33,127 nt of DNA from Candidatus Avelusimicrobium aviculae (GCA_944324655.1 CALUXF010000018.1:1-33127), one strand, 5' to 3'; shown: positions 22,264 through 33,004, counted from the stretch's first letter. Notes: generated from the letters alone by a model not told the origin. Numbers and translations: made by a program.

Positions 22264-22336
22264 GCTGGGGTAGCTCAGTCGGTAGAGCATTTCCATGGTA
22301 AGGAAAAGGTCGTGGGTTCGATTCCCACTCCCAGCT
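22264..22336 (+). tRNA. tRNA-Thr (GGT), copy 1
   Basis: 73 bases. The acceptor GCTGGGG pairs with CTCCCAGC-type 3' bases, the anticodon stem TTTCC/GGAAA encloses ATGGTAA, giving GGT. No CCA is encoded. Confidence 0.95.
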
Positions 22337-22376: not shown

Positions 22377-22449
22377 GCTGGGGTAGCTCAGTCGGTAGAG
22401 CATTTCCATGGTAAGGAAAAGGTCGTGGGTTCGATTCCCACTCCCAGCT
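22377..22449 (+). tRNA. tRNA-Thr (GGT), copy 2
   Basis: Identical over all 73 bases to the copy 41 bases upstream, while the spacers around them differ. This indicates recent duplication or gene conversion. It is followed 59 bases later by tuf. Confidence 0.95.
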
Positions 22450-24847: not shown

Positions 24848-25282
24848 ATGGCAAAAGAGAAAAAAATTAAAGGATACATTAAATTGCAGATTCCTGCCGG
24901 TGCTGCCAACCCGGCCCCGCCTGTGGGGCCTGCTTTGGGTCAGCATGGCGTGAACATTATGGAGTTCTGCAAACAGTTCAACGCCAAAACGGCTAAATTG
25001 GAAAAAGGGGTAAAGATTCCGGTCGTTATCACTGTGTATGAAGACCGCTCTTTTACTTTCATCACCAAAATGCCGCCCATGGCTGTACTTATTGTAAAAG
25101 AACTCGGCGTGGCCAAAGGTTCCGGCCAGCCCCACAAAGACAAAGTAGGCAAGATTACCCAAGCGCAGTGCGAAAAAATCGCCGCGCAGAAATTGCCTGA
25201 CTTAAACACCAAAGACATCAAACAAGCCGCGGAAATGGTAAAAGGCACCTGCCGCAGCATGGGTGTTGACGTAGTAAAATAA
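24848..25282 (+). CDS. rplK: 50S ribosomal protein L11
   Basis: 144 residues, normal length. L11 forms the base of the GTPase-associated centre with 23S rRNA. Seen: [20 protein letters not shown] (about 11-30), [12 protein letters not shown], and the C-terminal rRNA-binding part with [14 protein letters not shown] and [14 protein letters not shown] precedes the ATG. It lies 41 bases after nusG and 58 before rplA. Confidence 0.97.
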
Positions 25283-25340
25283 ATTTTGAAGGTAAAAGGG
25301 AGGGCCGTCCCGGCCCGCTTGTACCTAAAGGAGATTTTAA

Positions 25341-26015
25341 ATGGGAAAAAGAATTGAAGCAGCTAGAAAAGCATATGATAAAGCCAAAGTATATACCTTG
25401 GCGGAAGCCGCTCAAATCGTAAAAGACAATGCCAAAGCCAAATTTGACGAAACCGTTGAATTGCACGTCAGCTTAGGTATTGATACGAAAAAAGCGGACC
25501 AAATGGTTCGTGCTGCCGTAGTATTGCCGCATGGTACGGGCAAAACCAAACGCATTGCCGTTATTGCCAAGGGCGAACACGCCCAAGAAGCCCAAAAGGC
25601 CGGTGCCGACCGCGTAGGCGCGGAAGACATTGTGGAAGAAGTAATGAAAGGCAAAATTGACTTTGACGTTTTAGTTGCCACCCCGGATACCATGAAAGAC
25701 TTGGCCAAAGCCGCCAAAGTGTTGGGCCCCCGCGGGCTAATGCCTACCCCCAAAACGGGTACCGTTACGTTTGACGTAGCCAACACAATTAAAGACTTAA
25801 AGGCCGGCCGCGTAGACTTTAAAGCCGACGCTTACGGTATCGTACACACCATTATTGGCAAGGCTTCTTTTGACGCCGCCAAATTGGCTGAAAATGCAAA
25901 AGCTGTGATGGACACGATCCTTCGTGTAAAACCGAACACCTCTAAGGGCGTTTATGTAAAGAGCGTTTCTTTAAGCTCCACCATGGGCCCCGGCGTGTTT
26001 GTAACCACCAAATAG
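25341..26015 (+). CDS. rplA: 50S ribosomal protein L1
   Basis: 224 residues, slightly short of the common 230-235. L1 forms the mobile stalk by the E site and often represses its own operon's translation. Seen: RIEAARKAYDKAKVYTLAEA at the start, VVLPHGTGKTKRIAV, ATPDTMKDLAKAAKVLGPRG, LMPTPKTGTVT, and SLSSTMGPGV at the end. AAAGGAGA precedes the ATG. A terminator follows at once: rplJ, rplL and rpoB, which usually come next, are not in the window. Confidence 0.97.
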   Translation: MGKRIEAARKAYDKAKVYTLAEAAQIVKDNAKAKFDETVELHVSLGIDTKKADQMVRAAVVLPHGTGKTKRIAVIAKGEHAQEAQKAGADRVGAEDIVEEVMKGKIDFDVLVATPDTMKDLAKAAKVLGPRGLMPTPKTGTVTFDVANTIKDLKAGRVDFKADAYGIVHTIIGKASFDAAKLAENAKAVMDTILRVKPNTSKGVYVKSVSLSSTMGPGVFVTTK

Positions 26016-26032
26016 TAACTCTCTTTTGCACT

Positions 26033-26059
26033 AAAACCCCTCCCGTAAGGAGGGGTTTT
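26033..26059 (+). terminator. Terminator after rplA
   Basis: AAAACCCCTCC (26033-26043) pairs with GGAGGGGTTTT (26049-26059) around a five-base loop, ending in T-rich sequence. It separates the ribosomal operon from the TIKI/ChaN-like array. Confidence 0.92.
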
Positions 26060-26208
26060 GTTATTTATAATAAACTAGCCCAATTTTGGATTATTTAACG
26101 GGATTTTTGTCACAGCGCCGCGTCTTTTCAAACAGTGTTTTAGGGCAGTACCATAAGACCCAGCGGTAGATGGGCCCAATGGCCCTGGCTGTATTTATAC
26201 AGATTATC

Positions 26209-26214
26209 TATCAT
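26209..26214 (+). promoter_or_regulatory. Possible -10 box of the TIKI/ChaN-like array
   Basis: TATCAT ends six bases before the ATG at 26221, in the same spacing as the birA and TIGR02757 boxes. No -35 box and no Shine-Dalgarno are seen, so the call is weak. Confidence 0.3.
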
Positions 26215-26220
26215 AATAAT

Positions 26221-27300
26221 ATGAGCCATTATAAAATAACTCCGTGCGGTATTAAAAAAGGATGTTGGCTGGCATTGGTATTTTATTTTAGTTGTTGTTC
26301 TTTTTTGTATGCGCAGGAGTGGGCCCAAATGCACAAAGTGTTAATGCGTCAAGGGGAAAATATGGCTAAAAATGGGATAAAAGCACAAAAAGAGCTAGCC
26401 CGTACCTATGCCGCTATAGATGCGGTAGCCCCGTTTATGCATTTTTCTTCCCAAGATATCTTGCCCTGGAGTTTTAGGGTGCAGGCCCGGGCGGATAACG
26501 CGTTTGAACAAGCGGCCGTTTTGCGCAACAACCGGTTGGAATTGGCGGCCCGCCTGCTTGTGGACCATGCGGTACGCCGCATGCGCGCGCAGCATAAGGA
26601 AATACAAGCCTCTTTGCGCTATGCGCGTTCGGCGGATTTAGTGTCTTTGATACCGTCGTCCGCCAAGTTTATTTTTCTGGGGGAAACGCATCATCAGCCT
26701 GTTATAGAGAAACAGATTTTGTATATTTTAGCGCGTTATCATAAACGCTATCCGGAAAAGAAAATCATGTTGCTTACGGAGTTTGTGTTAGATACCAATG
26801 TTTCCCTTTTGCCCAGAGAAATGGATGAACGTATTACCAGCAAAAGAAATTTTTTTAATTTGTTAATGAAGTGGCGTATTCCTGTTTTTGGGCTGGAGGA
26901 GCCTTTGGCGCATAGTCAGGCGGCCCATGAAATATTTACGGAAAAAACCGGTACGGCTTTTTTGTCTTCAACGGCTTTAGCCGTGCGTACGCGCAATCAA
27001 CATTGGGTAAAACAGATAAAAGCCATGCATGAAACCTACCCGGATATGGTATTTTTTATCTATGCCGGGCTGGGGCATACGGAATACAACCTTCCCGCTT
27101 CTGTGGCGGCGGCTTTCCCGGAGAAAGAAACCTTTGCGATAGATTTCTTTGTGGGCCGGCGTTCCCGTTTTACTCCTTTTGACAGAGCTTTTGGCGGTTT
27201 GTTTTCCGGCCCGGGGGTTTGGTATTGGAAGGACGCTAAATATGCGCGTTTGGCGGGGTTTGATGTAAGCGCCGTCCTTCCCGCTGGAGAGGTAAGATGA
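26221..27300 (+). CDS. Exported TIKI/ChaN-like protein, paralogue 3
   Basis: 359 residues. The signal peptide (about 1-31) ends FLYA before QEW. Family motifs: GETH (154-157) after KFIFL, TEF (186-188), GLEE, RN (258-259 region, RTRNQHW) and GLGH (283-286), with AGFD near the end. With paralogue 7 it forms a subtype sharing an NNRxxLAARxxxxHAxxR helix ahead of the core. The ATG at 26221 is chosen because upstream codons would add residues before the signal peptide. First gene of the five-gene array; its stop overlaps the next start by four bases (ATGA). Substrate unknown. Confidence 0.75.
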   Translation: MSHYKITPCGIKKGCWLALVFYFSCCSFLYAQEWAQMHKVLMRQGENMAKNGIKAQKELARTYAAIDAVAPFMHFSSQDILPWSFRVQARADNAFEQAAVLRNNRLELAARLLVDHAVRRMRAQHKEIQASLRYARSADLVSLIPSSAKFIFLGETHHQPVIEKQILYILARYHKRYPEKKIMLLTEFVLDTNVSLLPREMDERITSKRNFFNLLMKWRIPVFGLEEPLAHSQAAHEIFTEKTGTAFLSSTALAVRTRNQHWVKQIKAMHETYPDMVFFIYAGLGHTEYNLPASVAAAFPEKETFAIDFFVGRRSRFTPFDRAFGGLFSGPGVWYWKDAKYARLAGFDVSAVLPAGEVR

Positions 27301-28454
27301 AAAAGTGGTTTTTTATATTCTTATTATGTGCGGTGTTGTTCCCGGCTGAGGCGCATTCCCAAGCTGTTTGGAAAAAAGCTTTTTGGAAAAAAATCTTTTC
27401 CGCTGAAGAAGAATCCGCCCGCAGAGCTATCACCGTGAAACAAGCCAATAAATTGCTGCTGGAGCGTAAAAGGCTTTCTTTAAAGAAAGCGCAGCAGGTT
27501 TGCTTGGGGGAGATAGGGGAATGTATGCTGGATGGGGAGGCGCCTATTCACCGCATTAAAGGGTGGCCGTTTTCTTTTTCCCAATCCGGGCCGTATGAAG
27601 ATAACGAGCTGTTTCAAACTTTGTCCCGTTCCGCAAAGAGGAACTATTTTATAGCGGCGCATAACCGCGCCGTATCCAGAACGGCGGTCGCACGGAGAAA
27701 TGCGCTTAAACGAATGAATGAAGCCAAAGAAGATTTAATGAAAGGGTTTTATAGTCCAACCGCCGTATATCCGGGCAGAGAGCTGGTTTCCATCGTGCAG
27801 GAAAAACATAAATATATTTTTTTAGGGGAAACGCATGGGTTTCCCGTCATTCAGGAGGCCATAAAAGATTTTTTGCAAGAATATCGCCTCCGCTTTCCCA
27901 AGCGGAAAATAATTCTGCTAACGGAGTTTCTGCCCAACACGCAAACAGCCGCCTACCGTTGGAAATTGAGAAAATTCCCGCAATATTATTCCATTTGGCA
28001 AATAGCGGATATTCTTAAAATACCCGTGGTGGGGTTAGACCCTGTATGGCTGCTTAATAAAAATTTTCCTGTTATGTGGGTAAATAAACCCAATGGAACG
28101 ACGGAAAAAGAAAAGATGTGGTTTTCCCCTGAAGTGCTGCGTGTGCGCAATTTGATATGGAAAAAGGAGATAGACCGCTTGCGCTCCCAATATCCGGACG
28201 CCGTATTTATCTTTCATACGGGGGCAACCCACGTAACGTATACGGAATCTTTTTCTTTAAGCGTGTTGTTTCCTAAGGACGAAACTTTTGTGGCTACTTT
28301 CCAACCGTATGAAATTTATAATAATCAGCCTGCCCGGAGTGATTTGCTGGACGCGTTTAACCCGGAACAATTTGCGTCAAAACGTTTTATCGTATGGCCT
28401 AACCCGGATATGGCCCGTATTGCCGGGTTTGACGCGCGCTTTAAATTACAATAA
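27297..28454 (+). CDS. Exported TIKI/ChaN-like protein, paralogue 4
   Basis: 385 residues. The signal peptide (about 1-21) ends EAHS before QAVW. After a longer basic N-terminal region come GETH (177-180) following KYIFL, TEF (209-211), GLDP, RN (284-285) and GATH (309-312), then AGFD. It belongs with paralogues 5 and 6: a Trp-Lys-Lys start to the mature protein, an NYxxxxHNR helix near residue 115, and an extra stretch after the TEF motif (FPQYYSIWQIADIL). GGAGAGG lies before the ATG, inside the end of paralogue 3, so the two are coupled. Superfamily assignment is by motif only. Confidence 0.75.
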   Translation: MKKWFFIFLLCAVLFPAEAHSQAVWKKAFWKKIFSAEEESARRAITVKQANKLLLERKRLSLKKAQQVCLGEIGECMLDGEAPIHRIKGWPFSFSQSGPYEDNELFQTLSRSAKRNYFIAAHNRAVSRTAVARRNALKRMNEAKEDLMKGFYSPTAVYPGRELVSIVQEKHKYIFLGETHGFPVIQEAIKDFLQEYRLRFPKRKIILLTEFLPNTQTAAYRWKLRKFPQYYSIWQIADILKIPVVGLDPVWLLNKNFPVMWVNKPNGTTEKEKMWFSPEVLRVRNLIWKKEIDRLRSQYPDAVFIFHTGATHVTYTESFSLSVLFPKDETFVATFQPYEIYNNQPARSDLLDAFNPEQFASKRFIVWPNPDMARIAGFDARFKLQ

Positions 28455-28456
28455 CT

Positions 28457-29626
28457 ATGCATAAAATAACAAAATTATTTATTGTTTTGCTGCCCGTGTT
28501 TTCTTTGTTATTTTTTGATATAAGCTATGGGGAGCCCGGCCCATGGAAAAAGCTGTTGCCCGCTTATAAAAACTTTTTTAAAAAGAGCGCGGCTTCCCAG
28601 CGCGCCAAAGTACTGCAGCCCAAACAGATAGAAAAAATATTAAATAAAAGAGTATGGCGAGCGAATAAAAAAATCTATCATAAGGGCGGCCTGATAGAAA
28701 TAGGAGGGTTATTATTTGTTAATGAATACCCCTTGGTGTTTTTCAAGGAGTGGCAGCCGGAATTGGGCCAAGCCTTGTTTCAAGATCAACCTTGGCTGCT
28801 GGCTGCCGGACCGCGCGCTCAACAGAATTATGTTATTTCTTTGCATAACCGTTTAGCGGCTACTCTTCTTAAAGAACGCGCCCAATTAAGAAAAGACCTC
28901 CAAAAAAATTCAGCCAGATTGCAAAGTGAAATTCTCCCCCTGACCCAGGAACCTTTTGCCTTGCAAGCGGCTAAGAGGATTCCCCCTAATACCCAACAAA
29001 TTTTAATAGGAGAGGGACACGGCGTGGAGAAGATATCCCAAGAAATACTGTCTTTTATCCAGGCGGTGCAAGCCCGGAATCCAGGGCGGCAAATTGTCTA
29101 TCTGACGGAGTTTATCCCCCAAAATGTAGACCTTGATTATTTATTGTCTATTATGCGTCTGTTGCCAAAAGATGCTCATTATTATCATATTTTTGATTGG
29201 CTGAAGCGTTGCGATATTCCCATTATAGGGCTGGAGCCCAGTTGGGTATGGATGTTCCAACCCCCGCAAGTATCTGTGGGAAACTTATTTCAACTAAAAC
29301 CATACGAAGTGTCTTTGTGGGAGAGTTTAGGCGGCGTTTATTTGCGCAACCAATCCTGGCTGCGGGTAATAGCCTCCGCCCGAAAGAGCTATCCCCATGC
29401 GTTGTTTATTATTCACGCCGGCTATGGACATACAGACTATAACGCCCCGTTTAATATATCCAAGATGTTTGCCCCCCAGGAAACATTTGTATTAAGAGTA
29501 TTGAAAAACGAGGGAAGTATATTTCATGCCTTTTCCGGCGGTAAATATAGTTACCCGCTGTTGGGTTGGAAAGACAAACAACTGGCCTATTTGGCGGGCT
29601 GTGACGCGCAAATAAAGGTGGATTAA
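28457..29626 (+). CDS. Exported TIKI/ChaN-like protein, paralogue 5
   Basis: 389 residues, the longest of the family. The signal peptide (about 1-25) ends SYG before EPGPW. Motifs: GEGH (185-188) after QQILI, TEF (217-219), GLEP, RN (297-298) and GYGH (322-325); the usual AGFD tail reads AGCD here. It shares NYVISLHNRLAA exactly in style with paralogue 6 (NYLVSLHNRLAA), pointing to duplication between them. It starts two bases after paralogue 4 with no separate Shine-Dalgarno, so translation probably depends on the upstream gene. Confidence 0.75.
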   Translation: MHKITKLFIVLLPVFSLLFFDISYGEPGPWKKLLPAYKNFFKKSAASQRAKVLQPKQIEKILNKRVWRANKKIYHKGGLIEIGGLLFVNEYPLVFFKEWQPELGQALFQDQPWLLAAGPRAQQNYVISLHNRLAATLLKERAQLRKDLQKNSARLQSEILPLTQEPFALQAAKRIPPNTQQILIGEGHGVEKISQEILSFIQAVQARNPGRQIVYLTEFIPQNVDLDYLLSIMRLLPKDAHYYHIFDWLKRCDIPIIGLEPSWVWMFQPPQVSVGNLFQLKPYEVSLWESLGGVYLRNQSWLRVIASARKSYPHALFIIHAGYGHTDYNAPFNISKMFAPQETFVLRVLKNEGSIFHAFSGGKYSYPLLGWKDKQLAYLAGCDAQIKVD

Positions 29627-29656
29627 GCCTTGTTTATATAGAAGAGAAAAGAAAAA

Positions 29657-30811
29657 ATGCAGAAAAAATGGATTTTTTTATTTGTTGTTTGTCTGTTCAC
29701 GCTCCCCGCATTAGGGCAAGCGCAGGGCTCGTTTTGGAAAAAGCTTTCTCTTTATTATAAGCGCGGAGAAGCAAAGTCTCAATCGTTCCAACGCGGCCAA
29801 GTGTTAAAAAGGTCTTCTTTAAAACAAATTTTGTTGGAGCGGGCAAAAAAATCGCGAGAGAGATTCTATCTCAAAACCCCGGCGGACCAGCTGCCTCTTT
29901 TAGTGGATGATACGGAGATGCCGGCCGTGGATGTTGATAATTGGACGGACCAACTGTCTGGCATGTTGTATCAAAGATACCCCTCCTTAAAGAAAGCTTC
30001 CGATACGTCTTTTAAAAATTATTTGGTCTCTTTGCACAACCGCTTAGCGGCGGGAACGGTTCAGCGGCGCAAACAAATTCGGGCGGATATACGGGCCAAC
30101 GTACGGCAACTGATGGAAAAACGGGAAGTGTTTTCTGCTGGAAATATTCCCCGGCAGGCGGCCGCTATGGTCTCTCCTCAAGTCAAACAAATCTTAATAG
30201 GGGAGGAACACAATTCGCAACAAGTGTCTTTTGCCGTGTTGGATTTTATAAAAGAAATCCAGGCCCGGGATCCCAAACGTCCTATTATTTATTTTACGGA
30301 AATGCTTCCGCGGGATTCCTGCGTAGCCGCCACCCTGCTGCTGATGCATGTTTCCGGACAAGATAAGAATTACTACGATATTTTTTCTTGGCTGTATCAT
30401 AATGGGGTGGGCATTAAAGGGTTGGAAATTGAGGAAATTTGGTCAGAGGCGGATATTCTTTTGCAAGATGCCCAAGGGCAACTATATCCCGTTCCGTTAT
30501 GGAAGAGTTTAAGCGGCATTTATTTGCGTAATACGGCGTGGCTGCAAACCATTCAAAATTACCGCAAAAAATATCCCGAGGCTTTATTTATTATTCATGC
30601 CGGGGCATGGCATACGGGGTATATCATGCCGTTTAGTTTGGCCAATGCGTTTAACCCAACAGAAACATTTGTGGTCCATTTTATAGCTTCCCGCTCTGCT
30701 TTGTTGGATATTTTATCAGATAATCAGGTGCGAGCGCCGGTATTGGCGTGGAAAGATAAAAATTTAGCCCATATAGCGGGTTTTGACGTGCAAATAACAA
30801 CGGGCTTATAG
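29657..30811 (+). CDS. Exported TIKI/ChaN-like protein, paralogue 6
   Basis: 384 residues. The signal peptide (about 1-22) ends ALGQA before QGSFW. Motifs: GEEH (182-185) after KQILI, TEM (214-216; TEF in the others), GLEI, RN (291-292) and GAWH (316-319), with AGFD near the end. Closest to paralogue 5. It lies 30 bases after paralogue 5, the widest gap in the array, with a purine-rich GAAGAGAAAAG upstream of the ATG. The His and Glu of the putative active site are kept despite divergence elsewhere. Confidence 0.75.
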   Translation: MQKKWIFLFVVCLFTLPALGQAQGSFWKKLSLYYKRGEAKSQSFQRGQVLKRSSLKQILLERAKKSRERFYLKTPADQLPLLVDDTEMPAVDVDNWTDQLSGMLYQRYPSLKKASDTSFKNYLVSLHNRLAAGTVQRRKQIRADIRANVRQLMEKREVFSAGNIPRQAAAMVSPQVKQILIGEEHNSQQVSFAVLDFIKEIQARDPKRPIIYFTEMLPRDSCVAATLLLMHVSGQDKNYYDIFSWLYHNGVGIKGLEIEEIWSEADILLQDAQGQLYPVPLWKSLSGIYLRNTAWLQTIQNYRKKYPEALFIIHAGAWHTGYIMPFSLANAFNPTETFVVHFIASRSALLDILSDNQVRAPVLAWKDKNLAHIAGFDVQITTGL

Positions 30812-30812
30812 T

Positions 30813-31922
30813 ATGAAAGACAACTTTTTTTGCAGAGGTGCTTTATTGTATCTTGCTGTGCTGTTGCTGTTTCCCGGTTTGGCGGAAGGGCAGGGCTGGC
30901 TTGCGGGCAAATGGCGCAATTTACGCCAGATGAATAAAATGCTGGCCGGGAAAGAGAGCAATTCCCAGTTAACGCACCTTTTATATAAACGAGTTGTGCT
31001 TGCTAGAAATTTACACTATCATTGGCAAAGCCGTCATACGGATGACTTTTTGTTTATGGAAAATCAGTTTAAGTATCTGCTCCCGGTATATTCGGTGGGG
31101 GAGCCGGACGCTTGGCAGGAGTTGGACACACGTATAGATAATGCGTGGGTTTATTCCAATAACCGTTATATGCTTGCAGCCCGCGTGCGGTTGGAGCATG
31201 CTTGGTCCCGCTTGCGGCACTTTATGCCGAAAATGGAAAAAGAGCTGCGTATTTCTTTTCAGGAAAACATGCCGTGTATTCCGGATTCGGCTAAATATGT
31301 GTTTTTGGGGGAAGCGCATGGCCTGGAAGAAATACGGAAATTATTTTTAAACGTGATTTTGACATATCAAAAACAGCACCCGGAAAAGCAAATCATTGTA
31401 CTGACGGAATTCCAGCATGACAAAGGATTGCAATTTACTCCCTTTAACGAGGAAGAGCGCTTTAAAGATTTTAAAAAATTTTTTGATGTCTTGGCTTGGC
31501 ATTATATTCCTTTTGCAGGTTTAGAAGAAGTTCATTCTTCCGTGGATGATCGTCAATTTGTTGGGAGAAATGGCTATACCTATCCCGCCCAGCGGACGGG
31601 AGAGGGAATGCGTCTTCGTAATATGTATTGGGAAAAACGGATACGGGCTTGGGAACGCAAATATCCCCAAGCGGTGTTTTTTATTTATGCGGGCAACGGG
31701 CATGTGGACTATCAAGCGCCCTTTTCTGTTTCCAGGCAATTTCCGCCGGGGAAAACCTTTGTTTTTAGTGTATATAAAAATCCGCAGTTTAACCACATTT
31801 TTCACGCGGCTAGCCAAGCCCGTTTTGTACTTCCCGGCGCTTTACTTACTTGGAATAACCCCCGCTGGGGCCGCATTGCGGGGTTTGATGCGGCTTATAT
31901 CCTTCCTTCTCCAACAGATTAA
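30813..31922 (+). CDS. Exported TIKI/ChaN-like protein, paralogue 7
   Basis: 369 residues. The signal peptide (about 1-26) ends LAEG before QGW. Motifs: GEAH (166-169) after KYVFL, TEF (198-200), GLEE, RN (269-270, RLRNMYW) and GNGH (294-297), then AGFD. It resembles paralogue 3 in the helix before the core (NNRYMLAARVRLEHAWSRLR). It starts one base after paralogue 6 and ends the array. The protease gene 65 bases downstream has its own promoter-like box, so cotranscription is uncertain. Confidence 0.75.
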   Translation: MKDNFFCRGALLYLAVLLLFPGLAEGQGWLAGKWRNLRQMNKMLAGKESNSQLTHLLYKRVVLARNLHYHWQSRHTDDFLFMENQFKYLLPVYSVGEPDAWQELDTRIDNAWVYSNNRYMLAARVRLEHAWSRLRHFMPKMEKELRISFQENMPCIPDSAKYVFLGEAHGLEEIRKLFLNVILTYQKQHPEKQIIVLTEFQHDKGLQFTPFNEEERFKDFKKFFDVLAWHYIPFAGLEEVHSSVDDRQFVGRNGYTYPAQRTGEGMRLRNMYWEKRIRAWERKYPQAVFFIYAGNGHVDYQAPFSVSRQFPPGKTFVFSVYKNPQFNHIFHAASQARFVLPGALLTWNNPRWGRIAGFDAAYILPSPTD

Positions 31923-31960
31923 AAACGGTTTTTGTCTTTGCTAAACAGCTTCTTTGCTTT

Positions 31961-31969
31961 TGCTATAAT
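31961..31969 (+). promoter_or_regulatory. Extended -10 promoter of the trypsin-like protease gene
   Basis: TGC-TATAAT ends 18 bases before the ATG at 31988. It is a consensus extended -10 element; the -35 region is poor. Confidence 0.5.
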
Positions 31970-31987: not shown

Positions 31988-33004
31988 ATGAAATTATTTT
32001 TTACATTATTATTTATTTTTGGTTGTTTGCCCGTTTGGGGGCAGGTGGGGGTTATATCCGTTACAGATGCGTCCCAATATACCTCTGCGGAAGATTTTTA
32101 CCATACTTTTGAATACCAAATCCAGCCTTTAGGTAAAAATACCGGTTGGAAAAAATGCCAAGCCACCCGCATTGGTAAACGCTGGTTTGCCACGGCGGCG
32201 CATTGTGTGTTGCCCTGCGCCCAAAGCGGCTGCAATATTTATATGGATTTGTTGGATGAGGACTATACCGCCTTGGCGATGGTAAAATCTACCCCTAAAA
32301 AACCCGCGGTGTTTATTCATCCGGATTATAAAATAGAAATCCCCGCCTTGGACGATTTTGCCCTTATCCGTTTGGATTTGCACCGCGCTTCTTATTCCTA
32401 CTTTCGCCGGGTTCCAAATGTAAAACCCGGGGAGCCCGTCTCCAAGCAAACTTTTGACCGGTTCCTAAATAAAAACCGCCGGGCGGCCTCTAAATTGCGC
32501 CGCGTGCTCAGCGGGGATTTGCCTCCTATTCTTACTTTTGATGATGCTACCTACCAATTAGACAGGAAACTTTCTGTTATTTCTATTTTTGACGGGGTAC
32601 GTGATGTTAAACCCAATCCTAACGCGGCTTATTATGTAAATGATTTAGGGTTTGGATATACTAAAAATTTTGGTATACGCAATGGCATGAGCGGCTCCGG
32701 CGTGATGAGTAATACAGGAGAGTTGGTGGGGATGGTGTCTGCTAATTTATACGTCAATACGGATCAAACAGACCTTAAAACAGGCAAAACAAAAGCAATG
32801 GCGTATGATTTCTTCCTTTTCAGCGCTTTTAATAAACCCATGCGTTCTTTTATGGAAAAAGTAATGGGCAGCGATTATTACCAATTGGATTTTAAAGATG
32901 CCTATCCTCAATTCGTCCGTAAAGGGTCCAAAGCGGATCATACGGTTATCCGGTCTATTGTAAAGGAAATCAGAAAAAAAGCCTCCTCTAAAAAAGCCAA
33001 ATAG
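31988..33004 (+). CDS. Exported trypsin-like serine protease
   Basis: 338 residues. A signal peptide (about 1-18) ends PVWG before QVGV. The chymotrypsin-fold triad is visible: His72 in FATAAHCV, Asp123 in LDDFALIRLD and Ser235 in GMSGSGV, followed by ELVGMVSA. Four cysteines near His72 (C57, C73, C77, C82) could form disulfides after export. The S1-family match is clear, but GMSGSG rather than GDSGG at the nucleophile and an insertion of about 80 residues between Asp and Ser set it apart from digestive trypsins. The last 30 residues are strongly basic. It follows the TIKI/ChaN-like array and could act on the same compartment or process those proteins; that link is inference. Confidence 0.87.
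   Translation: MKLFFTLLFIFGCLPVWGQVGVISVTDASQYTSAEDFYHTFEYQIQPLGKNTGWKKCQATRIGKRWFATAAHCVLPCAQSGCNIYMDLLDEDYTALAMVKSTPKKPAVFIHPDYKIEIPALDDFALIRLDLHRASYSYFRRVPNVKPGEPVSKQTFDRFLNKNRRAASKLRRVLSGDLPPILTFDDATYQLDRKLSVISIFDGVRDVKPNPNAAYYVNDLGFGYTKNFGIRNGMSGSGVMSNTGELVGMVSANLYVNTDQTDLKTGKTKAMAYDFFLFSAFNKPMRSFMEKVMGSDYYQLDFKDAYPQFVRKGSKADHTVIRSIVKEIRKKASSKKAK

What the first reader, a model, noticed from the sequence alone, without database searches (positions are those of the whole stretch)
26221..31922. Tandem array of five exported TIKI/ChaN-like putative metal-dependent hydrolases
Five consecutive genes (plus two at the left edge) encode signal-peptide proteins of 346-389 residues sharing GExH, a Glu in T/S-E-F/M, RN-xx-W and a final GxxH, with little identity elsewhere. 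This pattern is that of the TIKI/TraB/ChaN/EreA superfamily (known), in which some members cleave proteins such as Wnt and others bind haem. All seven copies keep every motif residue, so selection appears to preserve activity while the rest diversifies. Such an expansion beside an exported protease looks like an undescribed secreted system. The function and the metal dependence are inference.
Basis: partly seen in the sequence, partly recalled or inferred. Interest (0 to 1): 0.82.

Follow-up and report, generated by a model that had tools for sequence, protein, structure and literature searches.

The report
Expanded exported TIKI-fold hydrolase gene family
A gut bacterium of the Elusimicrobiaceae carries about 16-18 (relatives up to about 30) fast-evolving, exported relatives of the TIKI/ChaN/erythromycin-esterase enzymes, often as overlapping tandem genes, with every known catalytic residue kept, which points to an undescribed set of secreted hydrolases whose substrates are unknown.

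Summary
In detail: five tandem genes (26221-31922, +) plus two at the left edge (116-2234, -) encode exported paralogs sharing GExH, [TS]EF/M, RNxxW and GxxH. They belong to a large family. The window's genome holds 16-18 members, one congener about 27-30, and 55 of 90 Elusimicrobiaceae genomes have at least one; none was found on plasmids or phages. Two AlphaFold2 models (pLDDT 71 and 92) find TIKI-superfamily structures (RRSP, EreC, HopBA1, PMT, ChaN). Profile comparison links the family to ordinary ChaN of the same order (probability 94.6%; controls at most 0.45%). The motif matches the 2His/2Glu site plus transition-state Arg of EreC; each residue is kept in 97-100% of 150 members. EreC and RRSP, which share this site, are metal-independent, so 'metal-dependent' is probably wrong. 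The family lacks ChaN's Asp/His/Trp signature and lipobox, so it is not plain ChaN. Array genes overlap like operons, are syntenic across species, evolve fast (49-83% identity beside 98-100% identical housekeeping genes) and are under purifying selection (dN/dS 0.1-0.25). An S1 protease follows directly in at least 21 genomes but also exists without them. Substrate and activity are untested.

The parts
26221..27300 (+). array gene 1, 359 aa, signal peptide + helical N-lobe + TIKI-type core (E155 H157 E187 R258 N259 H286)
   Evidence: Pfam PF04187 5.8e-5 sub-threshold; AF2 model 1 pLDDT 71 with core >90
27297..28454 (+). array gene 2, 385 aa, overlaps gene 1 by 4 bases
   Evidence: ortholog 72% in L046
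28457..29626 (+). array gene 3, 389 aa
   Evidence: ortholog 58% in L046, 48% in L047
29657..30811 (+). array gene 4, 384 aa; residues E183 H185 E215 R291 N292 H319
   Evidence: AF2 model 2 pLDDT 92.3 pTM 0.86; Foldseek top hit RRSP 5w6l
30813..31922 (+). array gene 5, 369 aa
   Evidence: ortholog 70% in L046
116..1156 (-). family member at the left edge, 346 aa
1170..2222 (-). family member at the left edge; likely ATG start near 2222 (the listed ORF begins with TTG at 2234)
31988..33004 (+). exported trypsin-like (S1) serine protease with its own promoter-like sequence 31942-31969; recurrent direct downstream neighbour of family genes
26150..26189 (+). conserved leader element CCATAAGACCCA-N-TGGGCCCAATGGCCCTGG just upstream of the array
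   Evidence: TGGGCCnAAnGnCCCTGG upstream of 8 array-first genes from different species, 0 expected in shuffles; once in this genome
26032..26060 (+). terminator-like hairpin (12 pairs) ending the rplK-rplA unit before the array
   Evidence: conserved in L046-L048

Best explanation
The array encodes a lineage-specific, expanded family of Sec-exported TIKI-superfamily hydrolases. After signal-peptide removal each protein has a helical N-terminal lobe and a parallel beta-sheet core. A Glu-His (GExH), a second Glu ([TS]EF), an Arg (RNxxW) and a second His (GxxH) form one active site. As proposed for EreC, the first His would deprotonate a water held by the Glu and the second His, the water would attack a carbonyl (peptide or ester bond), and the Arg would stabilise the oxyanion; no metal is needed. 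The variable N-lobe and loops would set substrate choice, so tandem birth-and-death paralogs would give a panel of specificities acting in the periplasm or outside the cell. Shown here: homology, fold class, residue conservation, export-type N-termini, operon-like packing, synteny, purifying selection with fast divergence. Inferred: catalysis, metal independence, role of the N-lobe. Unknown: substrate (peptide or protein judged somewhat more likely than ester) and final location.
For: 150 members, 143 with the whole GExH/E/RN/GxxH set; A2 alignment of 126 members, 16-51% identical to its first sequence, invariant at H185 E215 R291 N292 G316 H319. Model 2 (pLDDT 92) hits RRSP, PMT, HopBA1, ChaN, BcR135, EreC; model 1 hits EreC, BcR135, HopBA1, ChaN. 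hhalign against ordinary ChaN: probability 94.6, E 6.6e-8, aligning all motifs; reversed and permuted controls at most 0.45. EreC catalytic set E47 H50 E78 R261 H289, metal-independent; RRSP 2His/2Glu all essential, metal-independent. Spacing: first His to second Glu is 29-30 residues in 101 of 104 members (28 in EreC and RRSP); Arg to second His is 28 in 80 of 104 (28 in EreC). Signal-like N-terminus in 143 of 150. 60 of 80 intergenic gaps are at most 20 bases, 23 are -4. dN/dS 0.12-0.25.
Against: No enzymatic data for any member. The superfamily includes members without shown hydrolysis (ChaN binds haem; PMT lacks the site), and ordinary ChaN also keeps the 2His/2Glu motif. Foldseek TM-scores are low (0.28-0.39 by query length) and SRP-type GTPases are interleaved, so the structural evidence is fold-class only. 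Sequence profiles of the family find no TIKI-type PDB chain directly.
Confidence: 0.58

Rival explanations
1. Haem (or metal-cofactor) binding and uptake proteins: an expanded, diverged ChaN set that catches haem in the gut rather than hydrolysing anything.
For: Closest sequence relatives are ChaN (69 of 104 cores hit PF04187 at E<0.01; hhalign 94.6%). Ordinary ChaN is in most genomes of the sister family but none was found in the window's genus.
Against: The ChaN signature GExHD....H is lost (Asp 11 of 104, His 7 of 104 against His in 28 of 28 ChaN) and ChaN's conserved Trp, 28 residues before the second His, is an invariant Arg here. N-termini look like signal-peptidase-I sites, not lipoboxes. 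Up to 30 diverged copies in a 1.4 Mb genome is hard to explain by one small ligand.
Confidence: 0.15
2. Pseudo-enzymatic binding or inhibitor proteins, such as immunity or decoy proteins in an interbacterial conflict, in which the conserved residues are structural.
For: Tandem arrays of fast-evolving exported paralogs without a fixed partner gene are typical of conflict systems (general knowledge); members are found in only part of the genus.
Against: Catalytic residues are the best conserved positions while the rest diverges to 16-51% identity; flanking ORFs vary in layout from array to array (not annotated); no PADLOC or PHROG match for the family.
Confidence: 0.12
3. Antibiotic-type esterases (EreA-like detoxification) exported to the periplasm.
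For: Foldseek top hit of model 1 is EreC, and the E/H/E/R/H set matches.
Against: Chromosomal, old, vertically inherited family with orthologous arrays; no matches on plasmids; many copies and diversification do not fit a single drug class.
Confidence: 0.05
4. Metal-dependent Tiki-type proteases.
For: Animal Tiki is reported as metal-dependent (cited in PMC6254334) and shares the superfamily.
Against: TraB/PrgY/gumN (Tiki's Pfam family) matches only 3 of 104 members and weakly; the residues match EreC and RRSP, both metal-independent.
Confidence: 0.1

Closest known systems
ChaN / Cofac_haem_bdg (PF04187, DUF399)
   Same: Closest by sequence; GExH, second Glu, Asn, AGxxHxxY align in order; ordinary ChaN occurs in most sister-family genomes
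   Different: Lacks HD....H, the Trp 28 before the second His and the lipoprotein signal; has about 110 extra N-terminal residues, largely helical in the model; multi-copy
Erythromycin esterase family (EreC, BcR135; PF05139)
   Same: Fold hits; same catalytic set including the Arg 28 residues before the second His
   Different: No Pfam match; E-x-H rather than the E47..H50 spacing; second His 117-155 residues after the first instead of 239; exported tandem family
RRSP, Ras/Rap1-specific endopeptidase domain
   Same: Top fold hit of the better model; steps E-H, H-E and H-H of 2, 28 and 128 residues against 2, 30 and 129 in gene 1
   Different: Part of a large toxin acting in host cells; no sequence similarity detected; no comparable delivery part here
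Tiki / TraB / PrgY / GumN (PF01963)
   Same: Same superfamily; exported or surface peptidase-like members known
   Different: Only 3 of 104 members match, at E about 0.003 or worse
HopBA1
   Same: Fold hit with the highest target-normalised TM-score among superfamily hits, 0.56-0.57
   Different: Injected effector of a plant pathogen; unrelated setting

Membership tests
TIKI superfamily | Parallel beta-sheet core with 2His/2Glu residues at strand ends | tested here: met
   fold hits; in model 2 E183/H185 at the end of strand 178-183, E215 in strand 210-218, H319 after strand 310-316; residues. Geometry not measured.
TIKI superfamily | Statistically supported homology to a known member | tested here: met
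   hhalign A3 vs Elusimicrobiota ChaN 94.6%, E 6.6e-8, six controls at most 0.45%
ChaN (PF04187) | Score over Pfam gathering cut-off across the domain | tested here: not met
   Window members 15.7-25.4 bits against 27.7 where matched, only over parts such as positions 7-67 of 213; a few relatives pass marginally
ChaN (PF04187) | GExHD....H signature and Trp before Asn/Asp | tested here: not met
   +6 His 7/104, +1 Asp 11/104, Arg in place of Trp
ChaN (PF04187) | Lipoprotein signal | tested here: not met
   3 of 150 with a lipobox-like string inside the hydrophobic stretch, 142 with AxA-type sites (heuristic)
ChaN (PF04187) | Binds haem | not testable with these tools
   Needs purified protein
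Erythromycin esterase | E47/H50/E78/R261/H289-type site | tested here: met
   Residue order and most spacings match, except the E-H step (+2, not +3) and the H-to-H distance
Erythromycin esterase | Pfam PF05139 match | tested here: not met
   No PF05139 match at E up to 1 for the seven window proteins
Erythromycin esterase | Macrolide hydrolysis | not testable with these tools
   Needs purified protein
Tiki/TraB (PF01963) | Pfam match | tested here: not met
   3 of 104 members, best 0.0026
Tiki metalloprotease | Metal dependence | not testable with these tools
   Needs EDTA/metal assays

The most novel reading that the evidence does not exclude
Gut Elusimicrobiaceae have evolved, from a ChaN-like ancestor, a previously undescribed arsenal of up to about 30 secreted metal-independent TIKI-fold proteases or esterases, each with its own substrate, diversified by tandem birth-and-death against changing host, diet or competitor molecules.
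Probability: 0.35. Interest if true: 0.75.

Novelty: new variant of a known kind. Interest (0 to 1): 0.52.

Why it matters
TIKI-superfamily enzymes are few and functionally scattered (Wnt cleavage, Ras cleavage, macrolide hydrolysis, haem binding). A family of many natural paralogs with a fixed active site and variable remainder is a natural experiment on how this fold changes substrate. It also gives poorly understood, mostly uncultured gut bacteria a strongly expanded candidate secreted enzyme set; in one relative it fills roughly 2-3% of the genome (estimated from copy number and gene length). A genome whose size matches, from memory, the cultured Elusimicrobium minutum carries three members, so a test in a cultivable organism may be possible.

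Tried and rejected
PDB sequence searches with family profiles gave only chance hits such as quinolinate synthase. NCBIfam, PHROGs and PADLOC gave nothing useful for the family. Phage or plasmid origin: no tblastn match. The idea that the window's copies are recent tandem duplicates was rejected: 15 copies need 12 label changes on the tree against 14.5 shuffled, and arrays are orthologous between species. A strict S1-protease partnership was rejected because S1 is almost universal in the genus. Adaptive evolution gene-wide was rejected (dN/dS 0.1-0.25), although synonymous sites near saturation and uncertain orthology limit this. The leader element as an Rfam riboswitch was rejected, and its RNA fold is no better than shuffles. 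Weak matches outside the family with the full-length profile (E about 1e-4) were not trusted, as that profile includes the signal peptide. Paper searches found nothing on this expansion, within an open-access library only.

Full report
Observation. The five genes and two left-edge genes exist as described. In the seven-way alignment GExH, E187, RNxxW and GxxH are invariant, together with other residues such as A345-G346 and D348 near the C-terminus. One four-base overlap and gaps of 1-30 bases join the five genes. The first gene most likely starts at 26221, where its ortholog starts, not at 26170.

Extent. The window is contig 18 of a 1.62 Mb, 53-contig, 95% complete assembly. A profile of the seven finds 18 matches in that genome; a core-only profile finds 16. 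Copy number varies from 0 to 27-30 in the same genus. Of 90 family-level genomes 55 have a match: 49 of 66 in the window's genus, and six in two other genera. One of these, a single 1,643,562-base contig, carries a tandem trio with GExH, [TS]EF and RNxxW. I recall that length as the chromosome of Elusimicrobium minutum Pei191, but did not verify it. Named hits in genome contigs are uncultured Elusimicrobium, Elusimicrobiaceae or Elusimicrobiales MAGs, plus a few titled only 'uncultured bacterium'. No match was found in plasmid or phage collections.

Family anatomy. From 224 ORF hits I kept 150 distinct full-length members. R258 is 150/150, E187 149/150, G154 and both His 147/150, E155 and N259 146/150, G346 149/150 and D348 137/150. 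143 of 150 keep the full set. By a simple heuristic 143 of 150 have a signal-like hydrophobic N-terminus and 142 an AxA-type site; lipoboxes are essentially absent. Runs of up to 11 consecutive members occur. Of 80 gaps, 60 are at most 20 bases and 23 are exactly -4.

Fold and homology. AlphaFold2 on gene 1 with seven sequences gave pLDDT 71 with a confident core. On gene 4 with 126 sequences it gave pLDDT 92.3 and pTM 0.86. PDB hits of model 1 are EreC, BcR135, HopBA1 and ChaN; of model 2 RRSP, PMT, HopBA1, ChaN, BcR135 and EreC. SRP-type GTPases are interleaved and TM-scores are low, so this shows fold class rather than close similarity. Independent sequence support comes from Pfam (PF04187 in 69 of 104 cores at E<0.01) and from hhalign against 20 ordinary ChaN proteins of the same order: probability 94.6%, E 6.6e-8, motifs in register, against at most 0.45% for one reversed and five permuted controls.

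Active site. The RRSP paper shows that two His and two Glu (3902, 4030, 3900, 3930) are all essential and that activity survives EDTA (PMC6254334). The EreC paper proposes E47, H50, E78, R261 and H289 with a water nucleophile and calls the family metal-independent (PMC7979712). Here the order is E-x-H, 29-30 residues, E, then R, usually 28 residues, H. The Arg-to-His distance equals that of EreC. All 20 ordinary ChaN of the order, and at least six of eight ChaN lipoproteins annotated in other bacteria, have Trp-Asn/Asp at that place, and all 28 have a His six residues after the first motif His, which only 7 of 104 family cores have. The family is therefore ChaN-related by descent but carries the EreC-like Arg. 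I infer hydrolase function and probable metal independence; neither is shown.

Evolution. The array lies between rplA and the S1 protease in two near relatives (L046, L047), with six genes instead of five, and after rplA in a third (L048), where one copy appears split. EF-Tu, NusG and L1 are 98-100% identical to L046 and L047 while array orthologs are 49-83%. dN/dS is 0.12-0.25 where computable, against 0.033 for the RND pump gene; in most pairs the N-terminal arm changes faster than the core. On a tree of 155 cores the window genome's copies are scattered, so most duplications predate the species; one relative (G003) shows partial lineage-specific expansion.

Context. The S1 protease gene is directly downstream, same strand and within about 110 bases, of a family member in at least 21 genomes (my count). 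Yet S1 homologs occur in 83 of 90 genomes, including ones without the family, and the gene has its own promoter-like sequence. Other neighbours vary. A strong terminator-like hairpin closes the rplK-rplA unit. A conserved element TGGGCCnAAnGnCCCTGG lies before the first gene of related arrays in eight species, with none expected in shuffles, and its longer form occurs once in this genome. Its function is unknown.

Verdict. Real, large and apparently undescribed family expansion of a known fold. The most likely reading is a panel of secreted, metal-independent hydrolases of unknown substrate. Novelty: new variant of a known kind. Limits: MAG data, no structure coordinates, no biochemistry, open-access literature only.

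Noticed in passing
window 26143-26220: Conserved leader before the array: CCATAAGACCCAGCGGTA-ATGGGCCCAATGGCCCTGG, followed in five species by ATCATAATAnTATG at the start codon. Core found upstream of related arrays in 8 species; possible operator or promoter of an almost leaderless transcript; no Rfam match.
   Followed up: partly
window 24848-26060: rplK-rplA is closed by a strong terminator-like hairpin and followed by the hydrolase array; the usual rplJ-rplL-rpoBC neighbours do not follow within the window.
   Followed up: no
family alignment, residues 345-348 of gene 1 (window c.27253-27264): A near-invariant A-G-[FAC]-D close to the C-terminus (G 149/150, D 137/150) is not part of the known 2His/2Glu site and has no explanation.
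   Followed up: no
L048 7751-8925: One array member in this relative is split into two overlapping ORFs (205 and 187 aa), a possible frameshift or decayed copy.
   Followed up: no
G090 C1 458412-461042 (L151, L152, L156): Tandem trio of family members in a single-contig 1,643,562-base genome, probably the cultured Elusimicrobium minutum (from memory of the size).
   Followed up: partly
window 22264-22336 and 22377-22449: Two neighbouring tRNA-Thr genes with the same anticodon (GGT) and equal Rfam scores.
   Followed up: no
L015 1297-2493 and 2805-3317 (G000 contig 17): A strongly diverged member (AV.H in place of GE.H) and a short fragment lie together, looking like decaying copies.
   Followed up: no
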